DNA of 59,793 nt from an uncultured cyanobacterium (lineage in GTDB: Bacteria > Cyanobacteriota > Cyanobacteriia > PCC-6307 > Cyanobiaceae), in contig CAIZQU010000144.1 in the NCBI GenBank assembly GCA_903935205.1, positions 1-59,793 of the forward strand, in the 5' to 3' direction. The notes under the pieces were generated by a model. That model was given only the letters and a program-made list of their open reading frames with translations, had not been told where the DNA came from and did not search any database. Numbering within the stretch: the first letter of the stretch is position 1; every line of letters starts with the position of its first letter. Position numbers and translations under genes: made by a program. This document shows positions 37,247-42,933 of this stretch, in pieces.

Positions 37247-39265
37247 TCAGGCCGTGGGGTGGGGGTTGGCAGCGGCGGTCAGAGCTTGGCCGCCGAGCAT
37301 GGTGGCCGCGAAGATGTCACGGTTGACCTGGAGATTGGCTGGGTCGAAATAGGAGCTATGGGCACAGCCCAGGTTGTAGCCCACTGGGCCGGCAGCGCAG
37401 CCCGTGGGCTCCAGGTTGAGGAACTCCCGGCTTACCTCGAAGCGATGGCCGATCGGTCCTCCCACATGGTCACCCTTGGCATCGAGATTGATCCAGTTCT
37501 GCACCAGGCCTGGCTTGGGGGCCCTGCGGGACTGGGCAGGGCGATTGCCGGGGCGCAGCGTTCCCTGAACCGGAGCCAGGGACAGGGCGCTGCCGACCGT
37601 GAACCAGGTGTGCACCCGACCATTCAGAGCCTGGTTCTCGAGCTCCCGCAGCCCCTCGTAGGCCACCACCGTGCCCCAGCTGTGGGAGATGATCTCCAGG
37701 GTGTGGCCGGCGGCGAGCAGCGGTCGGACGATGCTGGTGAACCGCTCCAGGATGCGCTGACGGGTGGTGGCGTTGACCATGTAGATCAGGAAATCGTCGA
37801 TGGCCATGGCTACGCCCCGGCTCGTGTCTCCTCCGCTGGGGGCTGCGGTCGGATCCTGGATCTGCTGCAGCCGTCGATCGTCAAGAACGTCCAGAATGGC
37901 CTGGCGCAGCTCCCTGGCCTTGCTGTCGAGCTCTGCGGCACCGCCACTGCGCTGATTGTTGACCAGATCGCTCCAGCGCACCTCGGCACGGCCCTGGCCA
38001 GGGGTGGCCGGACCAAACAGGGAGCCCACATGGGGTTTCAGGGCCTGCCACCACTGATCCGAGTAGCCAACCCCATGCTTGCCGATGCCATGGACGCTGA
38101 CCAGCACCCGTTGGCTCGAGCGTTGCTGCCGTTCGGGCGGGGACATGGGCTCCTCCGCCAGGGCTCGCATCGTGTCGAGGAAGCGCATGTGGGCCAGATA
38201 GACCATCTGCTGGGTGCTCAGGCCAAGCGGTTGGGGATCCAGGTTGAGCTGCTGCAGGGTGAGGTTCAGCGGCTGGGGCATGGGCGCCGTGGGGCCCGCG
38301 GAGGCGGAACCCAGATCCGGCCACAGCGGTAGCGACTCAGCCAGGCTGGAGGTGGCTGTGCTGCTGTTGGTGGACCCTGGCCGCGATGCCGTGTGGTCAG
38401 AAGAGTCGGCGACCCGACCGATCGCCAGCGATCGACCCTCGTGTTGGGGGATCTGCTCGTAGCGACCGCGCAATCGATCGACGACGGCGGAGATCAGTTC
38501 AGCACTGCTGCACTCGGGTTTCTGGCGCAGGATTTCACACAGGTTGTAGGTGAACGCTCCTTGGTAATCACCATTGATGTAGGCGTCGGCGGCGGTCTGG
38601 TGTTCCGAACAGGCCATCAGGTTGGTCTGGATGTCCCCCGCCACCCGCAGCGTCCGACGCCTGGATGCTCTCGATTGCCAGGCTTCGGCTGGCAGGTTCT
38701 GGGGAGCGATGAAGCGGGCGTTGCTGAGCAGGTGCTCGTCGACCACTTCCGTTGATTGATAGGGTTCTATTTCGCGGTTGTTGGCCAGGATCGTTTTTTC
38801 TTTTCCCGTCGCCTGACGCACGCGCATGAAGCGGGAGCTGCTGCCGGAATGGCAGGTGTCACGGATGATCAGCAGCTGCACGCCAGAATCGACGGATTGA
38901 ACCAGGTCAAACCATTCATCGTCGACCATGTAACTATTTGGATCGTCAAAGGCGAAATCCTGGAGGCAGGTGATCTCATCGTGGAGATCTTCTTCTTCAC
39001 CGTCTTTATCGGGGATATAGGAGCCATGGCCGGAGAAATGAAAGACCAGCACATCACCGCTGACCGCCCCCTCCGTCAACCATCTCCAGCCGTCCATCAG
39101 CCCGCTTTTGACGCACTCCTGATCAAGCAATAGACGAATATTGTCGGCCTGGAAGGCGAATTTGTTCAGCAGTACATCCTTGATGTTGAGCACATCGTTG
39201 ATGCAGCCGCGCAGGGGAATATGCTCATAGGCATTGATGCCACAGAGCAGCGCTTTATGGGTCAT
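37247..39265 (-). CDS. Type I metacaspase fused to an alpha/beta-hydrolase domain
   Basis: This 672-residue protein has an N-terminal caspase-fold domain (about 1-285). Catalytic His80 lies in HFSGHGSY and Cys138 in RDTCHSGS, and acidic residues near 95-117 (DEITCLQD, MVDDEW) match the Arg/Lys-binding S1 pocket of metacaspases. A Ser/Thr/Pro/Gln-rich linker (about 286-385) follows. A C-terminal serine-hydrolase domain (about 386-660) has VSVHGIGKHG as oxyanion strand and SHSWG with nucleophile Ser529. Asp595 or Asp599 and His636 are candidates for the triad. No signal peptide or membrane segment is seen. It is the last gene of the cluster 42933-37247, 176 bases after the DyP peroxidase, with no clear Shine-Dalgarno. 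Confidence 0.85.
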   Translation of the reverse strand: MTHKALLCGINAYEHIPLRGCINDVLNIKDVLLNKFAFQADNIRLLLDQECVKSGLMDGWRWLTEGAVSGDVLVFHFSGHGSYIPDKDGEEEDLHDEITCLQDFAFDDPNSYMVDDEWFDLVQSVDSGVQLLIIRDTCHSGSSSRFMRVRQATGKEKTILANNREIEPYQSTEVVDEHLLSNARFIAPQNLPAEAWQSRASRRRTLRVAGDIQTNLMACSEHQTAADAYINGDYQGAFTYNLCEILRQKPECSSAELISAVVDRLRGRYEQIPQHEGRSLAIGRVADSSDHTASRPGSTNSSTATSSLAESLPLWPDLGSASAGPTAPMPQPLNLTLQQLNLDPQPLGLSTQQMVYLAHMRFLDTMRALAEEPMSPPERQQRSSQRVLVSVHGIGKHGVGYSDQWWQALKPHVGSLFGPATPGQGRAEVRWSDLVNNQRSGGAAELDSKARELRQAILDVLDDRRLQQIQDPTAAPSGGDTSRGVAMAIDDFLIYMVNATTRQRILERFTSIVRPLLAAGHTLEIISHSWGTVVAYEGLRELENQALNGRVHTWFTVGSALSLAPVQGTLRPGNRPAQSRRAPKPGLVQNWINLDAKGDHVGGPIGHRFEVSREFLNLEPTGCAAGPVGYNLGCAHSSYFDPANLQVNRDIFAATMLGGQALTAAANPHPTA

Positions 39266-39441
39266 GGCTGGTCACAATGATGTCTGCCCGAAAGCTAGCA
39301 AGCAGCTTGTCTGCCGACAAGAATCGCGGATTGTTGTGTCCTCGTTGTGGCTCTGGCAGCAGCGATCGGGGCCCGCGAGCTGGCAGCCTGCGAAGCCCAG
39401 CCCAGCTGTGATCCGCCCCGCTGGCCGGCGCCCCATGGCGC

Positions 39442-41067
39442 TCAGGTGGGGTCGATCAGGCCCTGGGCGATCAGGCGGAGGGCGGTGAGGCTGGGAACAA
39501 AGAAATAAGCACCACCATGAACTTCGACAAACTGCGGCATCCGGTCGCAGATGAAGGGTGGCTGCTCGCTGCTGCTGGAAGCCTCGATCAGGAATTTGGA
39601 ATCGTTGGCATGGTTGCCAACGATCGGACATGTGTCATTGCCTGATTGAAAATCGAGGCCGTACTGAAGCCACTGTTGCTGTACAAACTCAAACTGACGA
39701 AACAGGCTGGCGCAGACCACCAACATCAGCACACCATGCTCTTCCTGGTCTGAGATGCCCGGACCTGAATGGCCGTAGGGAAGTCCGCGACGCAGAATGC
39801 GGCGACGGTTGTTGAGCACGCTTGTCGCTTTGGTCGCTGGTTGTCCCGCGGTCCCTGGCGCCACCGTCGGATCGAGCATGTCGCGGGGGTTGCTGCGACG
39901 CAGATGGGAGGAAAAGGGGCAGCGCGAGCCATCGGGATCAGCGGAATAGCTGAAGTCGCGCTGGATCAGATCCAGATAGGCTGCCTTCTTCTCCGTTGGC
40001 ATGGCGTCGATCTTGGCCCTTTCGGCCTGCCACTCTGCAAAGGTTGCTGCCCTCATCAGTGGAATGCCATCGCTCCAGCGGCCGACCATCTTGGCGCGTA
40101 GTGTTTCTTTCGCTTCTTCTAGGCTGATCGCATGGATGTTTGCATACGCGCTGGCCTTGGAGTCGACATACTGGTGGAAGGCATTCACATTCTGATGTAG
40201 CTTGCGGTAGGCCATGAAGGTGCCATTGCGGCTGAATTCAGTGGGAAGGATTCCCCCTGCGGTTTCCTGGGCTTCATCGGCATAGCCCAGCAGGAACTCT
40301 CCTGTTGCCAATGGAACCCAGTTCTGATCGGCGCTGAGCTTGCCCTGGCCAATGACTTCTCGGCTCATGATCTCTGGGTCGGAGTATTGACCTTCAAAGA
40401 CCGGATCGCCAATGCCATCGGTGAAGCCAAAATGCTCCTTGACCGGATCGGCCAGGACGGCCATGTCCTGGTAGTGGGGGTTGGGGCCTCGATGGCCGCT
40501 CAGAATCGTGACACCTCGCTCCTCTCCACAGGAACACACCAGCCATTGATAGCTGGCTTCCAGGGCCGCTTGGGCAGAGGGATGATCCTTGGGAGTGGCG
40601 TTGGCATTGAGGGTGATCAGGATATGCACCTGCTTGTGGGGATTGTTGAGCTCCGCAACCCAGACCGGGTCCCAGAGATCTTGGATGTGTTGTTGGCTGC
40701 TATGCAGATCGCGCAGGATCGGTGCGCGCTTCAACATCCCCTCCTGAAATTCATCCGGCATGCCGCGCAGGCTGTTCACCGGCACTCCCAGGGCGAGCAG
40801 GCCGCGGAAGGTGAAAGCGATGTTGATCGCCACATCGGGTTTGCTGGCCGTGACCTTGCTACGGTCGAACAGATTCTGGGTTCGAGAGGATGGCCAGAGT
40901 TCGGCGGTGGTGACCTTGCGCCTGAGGCTGTCGATGAATTCGCGGGCCTGTTGGGCGCGTCCCTCGTGCACGTGGAGCAGGACGCAACGGGCGATGGGGA
41001 AACCCTGCCTGCCGTAGGCCTGGAGAATGTTGCCTTGAATGTCGGCGAGATCAAGTTCTTTGGCCAT
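39442..41067 (-). CDS. DyP-type heme peroxidase
   Basis: This 541-residue dye-decolorizing peroxidase has the catalytic Asp217 in FGFTDGIGDP, GEFLLGYADE, RNGTFMAYRKLHQNV, the proximal heme-ligand His388 in SSHLRRSNPRD and the distal Arg region RRILRRGLPYG. Length and inserts put it with the long (class C/D type) enzymes. It oxidises substrates with hydrogen peroxide; the natural substrate is unknown. There is no twin-arginine or Sec signal, so it is probably cytoplasmic. It lies between the membrane-anchored unknown protein (139 bases upstream) and the metacaspase gene. Confidence 0.92.
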   Translation of the reverse strand: MAKELDLADIQGNILQAYGRQGFPIARCVLLHVHEGRAQQAREFIDSLRRKVTTAELWPSSRTQNLFDRSKVTASKPDVAINIAFTFRGLLALGVPVNSLRGMPDEFQEGMLKRAPILRDLHSSQQHIQDLWDPVWVAELNNPHKQVHILITLNANATPKDHPSAQAALEASYQWLVCSCGEERGVTILSGHRGPNPHYQDMAVLADPVKEHFGFTDGIGDPVFEGQYSDPEIMSREVIGQGKLSADQNWVPLATGEFLLGYADEAQETAGGILPTEFSRNGTFMAYRKLHQNVNAFHQYVDSKASAYANIHAISLEEAKETLRAKMVGRWSDGIPLMRAATFAEWQAERAKIDAMPTEKKAAYLDLIQRDFSYSADPDGSRCPFSSHLRRSNPRDMLDPTVAPGTAGQPATKATSVLNNRRRILRRGLPYGHSGPGISDQEEHGVLMLVVCASLFRQFEFVQQQWLQYGLDFQSGNDTCPIVGNHANDSKFLIEASSSSEQPPFICDRMPQFVEVHGGAYFFVPSLTALRLIAQGLIDPT

Positions 41068-41206
41068 GGGTTTGTCGGAACGGACGTTGGACGTATGGGA
41101 ATAACGGGTGTGCGCTCAGGAGGCTGGAGCCGCTATCTGGATCTAGCTTCCGGATCTACCCTCTGGAGCTGCCTTGGTGAAAGTCCTGCCTTGATGGAGG
41201 GGACGA

Positions 41207-42205
41207 TCAGGAAGGAATGCAGCCTGCGGGTTGGCTGGGAGCATCGAGAGAATCAGGCCTGTGTCGTTGCACGAAGCGGCTAAAGCTCTGCTGGAGATCG
41301 GCTGGACTGCGGCCCTGATTGTCTATCATAAAATCAACAAAAACACGTTGTAGATAAAGCGCTTTCAGCACCGATCTCAGATCTGTTCTTGGTGCGGTGG
41401 GAAAGGGCTCCATGCCAACGCTGATGATGCGTCGATACAACCAAACCAGTAGCAGGGCCAGCAGCAGCGGTAGCAGCAGCAAACGCAGGAGGGCGCCTGG
41501 CAGCAAAAGTGAAAGCGCCACCGCAGCGATCGCTGTTGTGATCAAGGGCACGCTCAGGACCTTGGACCACCGATTCGGAAGGGTGCCACCTCCCTGCCAG
41601 AGCCCTGGCTCCGCCAGCCAATAGTAATCGTTGAACGACATTGTCGTTTCGATCTGGCTTGAGAGAACTTGCTGGATGAAGCTCTCCCTGGGGCGGGAGG
41701 GATCAAAGCCCTGACAGTGTTGAGCAATCAGGGTCAACTTGTCGCCCATAACGTTCCAGAGGCCGTCCAGATAACCGCGTAGGCTCTCCGGGCTGCCATC
41801 GGCTGCGTCGAAATCGATGATCAAGGCCAGATAGGACCAGGGCAGATGATCGACAGGCCCTGGGATGACAGGGTTGATCTTGCGGATGGTGTTGAGGATC
41901 GCATCCTGATGTTCGCGGCCTACGAAGGTGAGGTCATCGATCACGACCAATCGGCAGAAATGGGTGCGCAGATCGCGGCTGAAGGGGGAGCGCCAATCGC
42001 CATCGATTGCGTCGTTCGCCTCGGCGGATGCCTGGGAGCGGTTGGTGGAGATGCGGTTGCCGCCCGTGGGTAACAGATCTAGAAGTTCGCGGATGGCGTG
42101 GGTGTGGGAATAGGAGTTTCCTGGGTCGACCTGGTTTGGGCAAAGCCCTTTCTGGATTGGAATCAATGCTGAAAGGAAATAATGGCCACCATCAAAATTA
42201 GGCAT
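41207..42205 (-). CDS. Unrecognised membrane-anchored protein of the DyP cluster
   Basis: This 332-residue protein has a soluble N-terminal part of about 210 residues (GGHYFLSALIPI, RTHFCRLVVIDDLTFVGREHQ, YLALIIDFDA, SSQIETTMSFNDYYW). Two close membrane helices at about 217-257 are rich in Leu, and a C-terminal cytosolic part contains LKALYLQRVFVDFMIDNQG. I do not know the family. I recall similar proteins beside DyP peroxidases in other bacteria, but cannot verify this here. It is the second gene of the cluster, 62 bases after the 42268-42933 gene. Confidence 0.65.
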   Translation of the reverse strand: MPNFDGGHYFLSALIPIQKGLCPNQVDPGNSYSHTHAIRELLDLLPTGGNRISTNRSQASAEANDAIDGDWRSPFSRDLRTHFCRLVVIDDLTFVGREHQDAILNTIRKINPVIPGPVDHLPWSYLALIIDFDAADGSPESLRGYLDGLWNVMGDKLTLIAQHCQGFDPSRPRESFIQQVLSSQIETTMSFNDYYWLAEPGLWQGGGTLPNRWSKVLSVPLITTAIAAVALSLLLPGALLRLLLLPLLLALLLVWLYRRIISVGMEPFPTAPRTDLRSVLKALYLQRVFVDFMIDNQGRSPADLQQSFSRFVQRHRPDSLDAPSQPAGCIPS

Positions 42206-42267
42206 GTCGGTTGTTGGTTTTGAGTGGGCTTTGCTGAGGTTGTATTCGTGAATCCACCCTCAGGCCA

Positions 42268-42933
42268 TCAGGACCTCAGGTGCTCCAGGCGTCGCTCCAG
42301 CTCTTTCCTGAGCAGGTGGCGGTTGCGGTCGGCGGTTTGGGTGTCGGTGCTGGCGATTGGAGCGGGGCCAGCGGCGGGAAGATTGTGCTGAATCTTCTGG
42401 GTAATGCGTGCATAGGCCTGGGCAAACTGCTCAGGACTGCTGGAGGCGGATAACTGTTGCAGGGTTTCGATGGCCGCCCAGACGCGAAGCGCTGACTTGA
42501 TGTCGCGCTGCCCCGATCCGGGTGTGGCATTGTAGTAATAATTGCAGTCAACCTGATTGAGACGAATATAATTTTTGAAGGGTGTTATCGGAATCGATCC
42601 TGGGTAGCGGATGCTGCTATACCAAAACAGGTCGAGGCCGGTGGGGATGCCATCGGAAAAGCTGTCGATGTATTGATCCCATGTGCCGTTAAAATTGCTC
42701 ACAAAAAACATGTAGTCATTGCCTGGCCGCTGCTTCTCTTCCAGCCCGGGCCACTGATCGCGGCGAATGATGAACCAGCGGGCAAAGTGAATGATCGACA
42801 GTTGCAGCAGCCCGCTCATGAAGGCTGGATTGATGCGGCCGAGCATGAACAGCAGCCTGTTGATCCAGGTGTTGCTCGGGTGCATCGGTGTGAGCACATT
42901 CATGCCATAGGCTTTACCGGCAATGTTGGACAT
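42268..42933 (-). CDS. Unrecognised protein, first gene of the DyP-metacaspase cluster
   Basis: This protein of about 221 residues starts MSNIAGKAYGMNVLTPMHP. Its central part has well-organised motifs (IHFARWFIIRRDQWPGL, FFVSNFNGTWDQYIDSFSD, YPGSIPITPFKNYIRLNQ, CNYYYNATPGSGQRD). The aromatic, Asn- and Asp-rich centre suggests a real enzyme or ligand-binding fold, but I know no function. A longer frame to 43074 exists and is rejected because it overlaps the protease gene upstream. The DNA here is clearly lower in GC than its neighbours (see 42520-42720), suggesting acquisition by transfer. Confidence 0.6.
   Translation of the reverse strand: MSNIAGKAYGMNVLTPMHPSNTWINRLLFMLGRINPAFMSGLLQLSIIHFARWFIIRRDQWPGLEEKQRPGNDYMFFVSNFNGTWDQYIDSFSDGIPTGLDLFWYSSIRYPGSIPITPFKNYIRLNQVDCNYYYNATPGSGQRDIKSALRVWAAIETLQQLSASSSPEQFAQAYARITQKIQHNLPAAGPAPIASTDTQTADRNRHLLRKELERRLEHLRS

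What the first reader, a model, noticed from the sequence alone, without database searches (positions are those of the whole stretch)
37247..42933. Four-gene cluster: metacaspase-hydrolase, DyP peroxidase and two unknown proteins
Four co-directional genes combine a caspase-type protease fused to a serine hydrolase, a heme peroxidase without an export signal, a membrane-anchored unknown protein and a soluble unknown protein. Gaps are 62-176 bases and there is no housekeeping gene among them. The mix of a suicide-type protease, a lipase-like domain and a peroxidase suggests a stress, cell-death or anti-phage module. The function is my hypothesis; the gene content is seen directly.
Basis: partly seen in the sequence, partly recalled or inferred. 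Interest (0 to 1): 0.75.

Follow-up and report, generated by a model that had tools for sequence, protein, structure and literature searches.

The report
DyP peroxidase module beside a metacaspase
Three of the four genes belong to a widely shared bacterial gene set that pairs a heme peroxidase with an unnamed protein domain and often with a second heme enzyme, possibly to process oxidised lipids, while the caspase gene looks like a local neighbour.

Summary
The four genes are real and correctly placed, but they are two things. P4, P3 (the two unknowns) and DyP form a conserved module. P3 and P4 carry the same kind of domain, which in 43 of 80 fetched loci sits twice in one protein. In 80 of 80 loci fetched by this domain (eight phylum-level groups by record title) a DyP lies on the same strand within 1 kb, sometimes fused. 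A P450 is near in 30 of 80 and a catalase-like protein in 15 of 80 (one overlap); a Pararhizobium plasmid encodes P450-domain-domain-DyP as one chain. In five of seven related genomes a P450 follows the trio; in this genome P450 and GGDEF/EAL genes lie on another contig. The metacaspase-hydrolase is beside the trio in 1 of 7 trio genomes and in none of the 80 loci; co-occurrence is not significant (p = 0.13). Best reading: a membrane-attached heme-enzyme pathway acting on a lipophilic substrate, perhaps fatty acids, next to an unrelated or newly recruited protease-hydrolase. Substrate and function are inferred. P3 and P4 match no model in Pfam, NCBIfam, PADLOC or PHROGs. A four-gene death or defence module is not supported.

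The parts
42268..42933 (-). P4: single domain (domain B of the two-domain protein of other bacteria)
   Evidence: model pLDDT 80.5, weak dimeric alpha+beta barrel matches
41207..42205 (-). P3: domain A plus two hydrophobic segments (membrane anchor)
39442..41067 (-). DyP-type heme peroxidase
   Evidence: Pfam DyP_N 31.7 bits (cut-off 27.5), Dyp_perox_C 24.7 (cut-off 20); heme-site residues by motif
38429..39259 (-). Metacaspase (C14) domain of the neighbouring gene; not part of the conserved module
37250..38128 (-). Hydrolase-like C-terminal domain of the same neighbouring gene
   Evidence: Motif; stand-alone or protease-coupled relatives

Best explanation
P4, P3 and DyP are one functional module. 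P3 and P4 are split halves of a two-domain, mostly membrane-anchored protein found beside, or fused to, DyP in many bacterial phyla. I propose that P3 anchors the assembly at a membrane, that the two domains bind or present a lipophilic substrate to the DyP heme, and that a second heme enzyme (often a P450, elsewhere a catalase-like protein) processes the oxidised intermediate. Free or oxidised fatty acids are my best guess for the substrate. In this genome the P450 and its GGDEF/EAL partner would act from another contig. The metacaspase-hydrolase next door is a separate protease-plus-hydrolase protein that came to lie beside the trio; at most it was recruited as the hydrolase. Shown by sequence: shared domain, DyP association, P450 or catalase-like association, separated operon parts, singular caspase adjacency. 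Inferred: physical complex, substrate, order of reactions, any role of the caspase.
For: Domain A and B profiles from 43 tandem proteins match at 99.9%. DyP on the same strand within 546 bp, or in the same chain, in 80 of 80 loci. P450 within 4 kb in 30 of 80, catalase-like in 15 of 80, one overlap (p = 0.005 for so little overlap). Fusions: domA-domB-DyP (L067, L080), DyP-P450 (L053, L101, L071), P450-domA-domB-DyP. Seven picocyanobacterial genomes have P4-P3-DyP; P450 follows directly in five. This genome keeps a P450 (64% identity) and GGDEF/EAL (75%) side by side elsewhere. In the genus, close DyP and close P450 occur in the same 6 of 42 genomes (p = 1.9e-7; p = 2.5e-4 with the unselected cut-offs). 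Linker with a hydrophobic segment in 38 of 43 tandem proteins. Patatin, class 3 lipase, GDSL-like or alpha/beta hydrolase genes beside some loci.
Against: No tool here tests substrate or activity. 50 of 80 loci have no P450 within 4 kb and 36 of 80 have neither P450 nor a catalase-like gene by my profiles. Lipase-type neighbours are a minority: patatin is 3 of 57 adjacent ORFs. 18 of 86 domain segments also pass the hydrophobicity threshold, so it is not specific to the linker. P3 and P4 compared through their own small alignments reach only 64% (E 6.4e-5). The catalase-like label in the fused L059 and L113 chains rests on my profile; Pfam gave them no family at E 0.001. The P450s resemble general bacterial P450s; only a weak CYP152 fatty-acid peroxygenase match (E 1.9e-5, far below cut-off) was seen.
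Confidence: 0.45

Rival explanations
1. The four genes are one stress, cell-death or anti-phage module, with the metacaspase-hydrolase as effector.
For: Adjacency on one strand. PADLOC 'caspase' model E 3.1e-14 over residues 5-285. In congener G406 the caspase-hydrolase follows a TPR-S protein with a TIR-like match. In Desmonostoc a trypsin/GDSL-like protein sits just upstream of the P4-like gene and DyP, a loose parallel.
Against: Beside the trio in 1 of 7 trio genomes; in G409 both exist on different contigs. Overlap 2, with 5 and 5 of 37 congeners, p = 0.13. No C14 match in the 80 loci with the window's caspase as query. No defence partner among ten flanking proteins beyond GlgB-like and ABC-ATPase matches.
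Confidence: 0.08
2. The trio is a peroxide-stress device: DyP removes hydrogen peroxide or organic peroxides, P3 and P4 help heme loading, folding or membrane docking, and the P450 or catalase-like partner belongs to the same response; no dedicated lipid product is made.
For: DyP with intact heme-site residues; catalase-like partner in 15 of 80 and GST-like in 10 of 80 loci.
Against: P450 is a more common partner (30 of 80) and is fused to DyP, which a plain peroxide scavenger would not need.
Confidence: 0.3
3. The module tailors a specialised metabolite: the alpha+beta-barrel-like domains act like polyketide-cyclase or monooxygenase folds and DyP and P450 are tailoring oxidases.
For: Weak fold matches of P4 include polyketide cyclases and antibiotic-biosynthesis monooxygenases; P450s resemble general bacterial P450s.
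Against: No synthase family appears among the 25 most common Pfam families of 57 adjacent ORFs (71 families in all); fold matches are within the range the tool calls unspecific.
Confidence: 0.12

Closest known systems
Cyanobacterial 10S-dioxygenase plus catalase-related hydroperoxide lyase of Nostoc punctiforme (Brash et al. 2014, seen only as cited in passages of PMC13049297)
   Same: A heme peroxidase-type enzyme working with a separate catalase-related protein in a cyanobacterium
   Different: That oxygenase is a cyclooxygenase relative with a known product; here it is DyP with P3/P4 domains and no known product
Fungal dioxygenase-P450 fusions (abstract and passages of PMC13049297)
   Same: A peroxidase-type domain fused to a P450
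   Different: Cyclooxygenase-like domain, not DyP; no P3/P4-type domain
DyP encapsulin operons (passages of PMC8346489)
   Same: DyP as core enzyme with accessory genes of unknown role
   Different: No shell gene among the four genes; encapsulins were not searched for elsewhere in the genome
Cyanobacterial orthocaspases (section 15 and passages of PMC8283722)
   Same: C14 domain with His-Cys dyad and a C-terminal extra domain
   Different: None of the 35 accessory Pfam domains listed there is a hydrolase; as this hydrolase has no Pfam match above cut-off, that survey could not have shown it

Membership tests
DyP-type peroxidase superfamily | DyP_N and Dyp_perox_C domains | tested here: met
   Both above Pfam cut-offs; NCBIfam TIGR01413 E 1.8e-24 but 86.6 bits, under its cut-off of 100.5
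DyP-type peroxidase superfamily | GxxDG motif, proximal His, distal Arg | tested here: met
   Asp217, His388, Arg423 by motif and alignment to a solved DyP; roles recalled
DyP-type peroxidase superfamily | Heme binding and peroxidase activity | not testable with these tools
   Needs biochemistry
Metacaspase / orthocaspase (C14) | p20 domain with His-Cys dyad | tested here: met
   PF00656 E 2.4e-24; yeast metacaspase-1 chain E 2e-25 (source organism recalled); His80, Cys138
Metacaspase / orthocaspase (C14) | Cleavage after basic residues | not testable with these tools
   Needs biochemistry
Caspase-containing anti-phage defence system | Caspase protein matching a defence model | tested here: inconclusive
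   PADLOC PDLC02987 E 3.1e-14, profile positions 5-192 of 453 only
Caspase-containing anti-phage defence system | Other components of a defence system alongside | tested here: not met
   None in P4, P3, DyP; ten flanking proteins gave only GlgB-like and ABC-ATPase-type matches
Dimeric alpha+beta barrel fold (P4) | Ferredoxin-like alpha+beta fold | tested here: inconclusive
   Foldseek: no match at E 0.001; best VIA-align Z 7.0, rmsd 3.3, 99 residues, L-fucose mutarotase 7byu
Oxylipin-type heme cascade | Cyclooxygenase-like or lipoxygenase dioxygenase | tested here: not met
   The oxidase is DyP; Pfam showed no such domain in the six window proteins scanned
Oxylipin-type heme cascade | P450 or catalase-related partner | tested here: met
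   44 of 80 loci have one or both within 4 kb; P450 in this genome on another contig
Oxylipin-type heme cascade | Fatty acid hydroperoxide as intermediate | not testable with these tools
   Needs biochemistry

The most novel reading that the evidence does not exclude
Bacteria of many phyla carry an undescribed heme-only lipid-oxidation pathway in which DyP takes the place of lipoxygenase or cyclooxygenase, a two-domain membrane protein feeds it, and a P450 or a catalase-like enzyme, as in plants and corals, finishes the product; in picocyanobacteria it is tied to GGDEF/EAL (c-di-GMP) proteins, and here it has come to lie beside a caspase-hydrolase that may supply the acyl substrate.
Probability: 0.18. 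Interest if true: 0.85.

Novelty: new variant of a known kind. Interest (0 to 1): 0.6.

Why it matters
The natural role of many bacterial DyP peroxidases is open (recalled; PMC8346489 calls that of encapsulin DyPs speculative). A companion domain beside DyP at all 80 loci examined, with P450 or catalase-like partners and a single-chain P450-domain-domain-DyP fusion, gives a direct handle: the natural substrate can be looked for with the fusion. It would also give a name to a domain that matched nothing in four family libraries.

Tried and rejected
Four-gene module: not upheld for the caspase (see rivals). P3/P4-type domains as relatives of DyP by sequence: hhalign probability under 1% for both. 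P3 fold: model pLDDT 72.1, no credible Foldseek match. Hydrolase relatives in four genomes of family f7 (the family of the Desmonostoc genome G278) were checked for trio genes nearby: none found. Weaker DyP relatives in G391, G412 and G434 have no P4 detected nearby (G434 lies near a contig end); G399 has a 24% P4-like hit just upstream of its DyP. Synteny: the MBL-like gene precedes glgX in 29 of 29 congener loci read and HU in 28 of 29 (L168 is cut by its contig end); none shows the caspase, YgjP or urea-transport genes within about 1.5 kb past glgX (29 of 41 congeners read), and five longer stretches show no window gene past glgX. So the block lies at a variable junction; I could not reconstruct the event. 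A chimeric assembly at the DyP-caspase junction is not excluded (169 contigs). Promoter and terminator scan uninformative. P4 on plasmids: 3 of 72,556 records; the hydrolase domain: none. Literature: the ten searches listed no paper that I could recognise as describing this module; I saw listings, plus passages of PMC8283722 (and its section 15), PMC8346489, PMC13049297; three terms sought in PMC11719350 gave zero hits in the part held. Most subscription papers are not held, so this is weak evidence of absence.

Limits of the counts: the 80 loci are the best 80 of 189, found through two short conserved peptides, and include near-relatives (several Halomonas and Methylomonas). L034 is the same contig as L021, and its DyP frame stops at 310 aa. 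The P4, DyP, P450 and catalase-like profiles were built from these same loci, each from one starting sequence. My gene picker takes longest frames and misses genes in GC-rich loci; one search uses all six frames instead. The caspase negative rests on the window's own caspase as query; only 25 of 71 families are shown. The same-6-of-42 result uses cut-offs chosen after seeing the tables (DyP E at most 1e-80, P450 at most 1e-69). With the calls' own cut-offs it is DyP 10, P450 7, shared 6 of 42. The caspase test covers the 37 genus members, not all 42. The DyP tree holds 25 rows that I chose, rooted at the midpoint.

Full report
Observation. The four genes exist as described: coordinates, strand, lengths and gaps match. 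C14 and DyP domains are above Pfam cut-offs; catalytic motifs are present. The hydrolase half rests on motif and a below-threshold DUF900 hit. P3 and P4 match nothing in Pfam, NCBIfam, PADLOC (E up to 1) or PHROGs (E up to 0.001).

What P3 and P4 are. P4 has a match in 4 of 386 cyanobacterial genomes, its own included. In G270 and G221 it is followed by a P3 relative and DyP; in G278 a P4-like gene lies directly before DyP. A scan of genome contigs with a four-sequence P4 alignment gave 189 relatives, of which 80 loci were kept. In 43 of 80 loci my gene picker found one protein that carries the domain twice; in 38 of these 43 the linker holds a strongly hydrophobic segment, though 18 of the 86 domain segments pass the same threshold. 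The two domains match each other at 99.9% probability. The P3 proteins of G270 and G221 are found by the P4 profile, and the window's P3 is 31-41% identical to them; P3 and P4 compared through their own small alignments give 64%, E 6.4e-5. So P3 corresponds to domain A plus the membrane part, P4 to domain B.

Link to DyP. In 80 of 80 loci a DyP match lies on the same strand, at most 546 bp from the domain, or in the same chain; the window's DyP finds 78 of 80 by plain tblastn. Aquimarina L067 encodes domA-domB-DyP in one 904-aa chain. By record title the loci fall in Cyanobacteria, Chloroflexota, Acidobacteria, Planctomycetota, Bacteroidetes, Actinomycetes, Deltaproteobacteria/Myxococcales and other Proteobacteria.

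Link to a second heme enzyme. A P450 is within 4 kb on the same strand in 30 of 80 loci and a catalase-like protein in 15 of 80, with one locus holding both; 36 of 80 have neither by my profiles. For so little overlap 5.6 would be expected, p = 0.005, although the loci are not independent. There are DyP-P450 chains in L053, L101 and L071 (for L101 Pfam reached only the DyP domains at E 0.001), catalase-like sequence in the DyP chain of Halomonas L059 and at the start of the two-domain protein of L113 (Pfam gave neither chain a family at E 0.001, while L044 and L039 beside other modules reach Pfam Catalase at 5e-6 and 5e-10), and a P450-domA-domB-DyP chain of 1423 aa on a Pararhizobium plasmid. 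A Rhizobium plasmid has DyP, the domain, a catalase-family protein and an alpha/beta hydrolase in a row. Other neighbours vary: of 57 adjacent ORFs from 45 loci, 3 are patatin-like and 3 protein kinases. GST-like sequence is near 10 of 80, fused to the P450 in Methylomonas L060.

The operon in relatives and in this genome. Seven picocyanobacterial genomes have P4-P3-DyP in this order: the window's, G270, G221, G409, G386, G432, G392. In five a P450 follows directly, and in three of these (G270, G221, G392) a GGDEF/EAL protein follows the P450. The window's genome has one DyP match in all; its P450 (64% identity to that of G270) and GGDEF/EAL (75%) lie side by side on contig C75. flags a TGA for that P450, but the frame read has no stop inside the P450. 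G409 also has its P450 on another contig. So in two assemblies the parts are separated. A DyP tree of 25 chosen rows puts seven cyanobacterial, three alphaproteobacterial and one further row (L088, titled proteobacterium) in one fully supported group, with its inner order partly unresolved. Alphaproteobacterial P4 is 62-65% identical to the window's, within the range of congeners G409, G386, G432, G392 (59-70%) and above same-genus G270 (43%), which points to horizontal transfer in an unknown direction. L088 lies next to G221 and may be a mislabelled contig.

The metacaspase-hydrolase. Full-length relatives occur in 4 of 36 other genus members tested (G406, G412, G390, G409), none with trio genes in the stretches read. 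No C14 match was found in the 80 loci with the window's caspase as query. Trio and caspase-hydrolase each occur in 5 of 37 genomes, together in 2, p = 0.13. The genome holds four C14 genes in all. The hydrolase domain has its own relatives at 48-52% identity in four genomes of family f7, plus two weak matches in congeners (7 of 386 genomes with its own): one fused to an M4 thermolysin-type protease, two near an S8 subtilase gene, one beside a radical SAM gene. So this hydrolase is repeatedly coupled to proteases of unrelated families; the caspase is one of them.

Mechanism. From these associations I infer a membrane-attached assembly in which the paired domains serve DyP and a second heme enzyme completes a two-step oxidation. 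The alternation of P450 and catalase-like partners recalls fatty-acid hydroperoxide metabolism, where CYP74-type P450s and catalase-like proteins both occur (abstracts seen in the listings: PMC8124189, PMC3925239, PMC5617202; passages of PMC13049297). This is analogy, not a test. My odds by part: P3-P4-DyP is one module, 0.95; the P450 is its usual partner in this genus, 0.85; lipophilic or lipid substrate, 0.4; the caspase is functionally part of it, 0.1.

Structure. P4 was modelled at mean pLDDT 80.5. Foldseek gave no match at E 0.001; in the second look the model (residues 4-154) aligns with sugar mutarotases, antibiotic-biosynthesis monooxygenases and IsdG-type proteins, best Z 7.0, a level the tool says may mean only a common arrangement. 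P3 was modelled at 72.1 without useful matches.

Verdict. Observation confirmed; interpretation partly supported. The finding is worth more for the trio than for the caspase.

Noticed in passing
window 37250-38128; L156-L159: The hydrolase domain fused to the caspase also occurs fused to an M4 protease (L159) and near S8 subtilase genes (L157, L158): a hydrolase repeatedly coupled to unrelated proteases.
   Followed up: partly
L161:3682-7953 (NZ_CP119567.1 839910-844181): Pararhizobium qamdonense plasmid p2 encodes a 1423-aa P450-domA-domB-DyP chain, annotated only as cytochrome P450, between an adenylate/guanylate cyclase-domain gene and a Crp/Fnr regulator gene.
   Followed up: partly
L022:5979-9438: In congener G406 the caspase-hydrolase follows a TPR-S protein with a TIR-like match, recalling conflict-system effectors.
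   Followed up: no
L034:8303-9721: In Desmonostoc a trypsin-like plus GDSL-like protein lies just upstream of the P4-like gene and a short DyP frame: another protease-lipase pairing beside the module.
   Followed up: no
L019:2873-4777, L020:3219-5030, L137:3438-5162, L032:11359-13203: GGDEF/EAL proteins follow the P450 in several picocyanobacteria, tying the module to c-di-GMP signalling.
   Followed up: partly
L088: A contig titled 'uncultured proteobacterium' carries the full picocyanobacterial gene order and groups with G221; it may be mislabelled.
   Followed up: no
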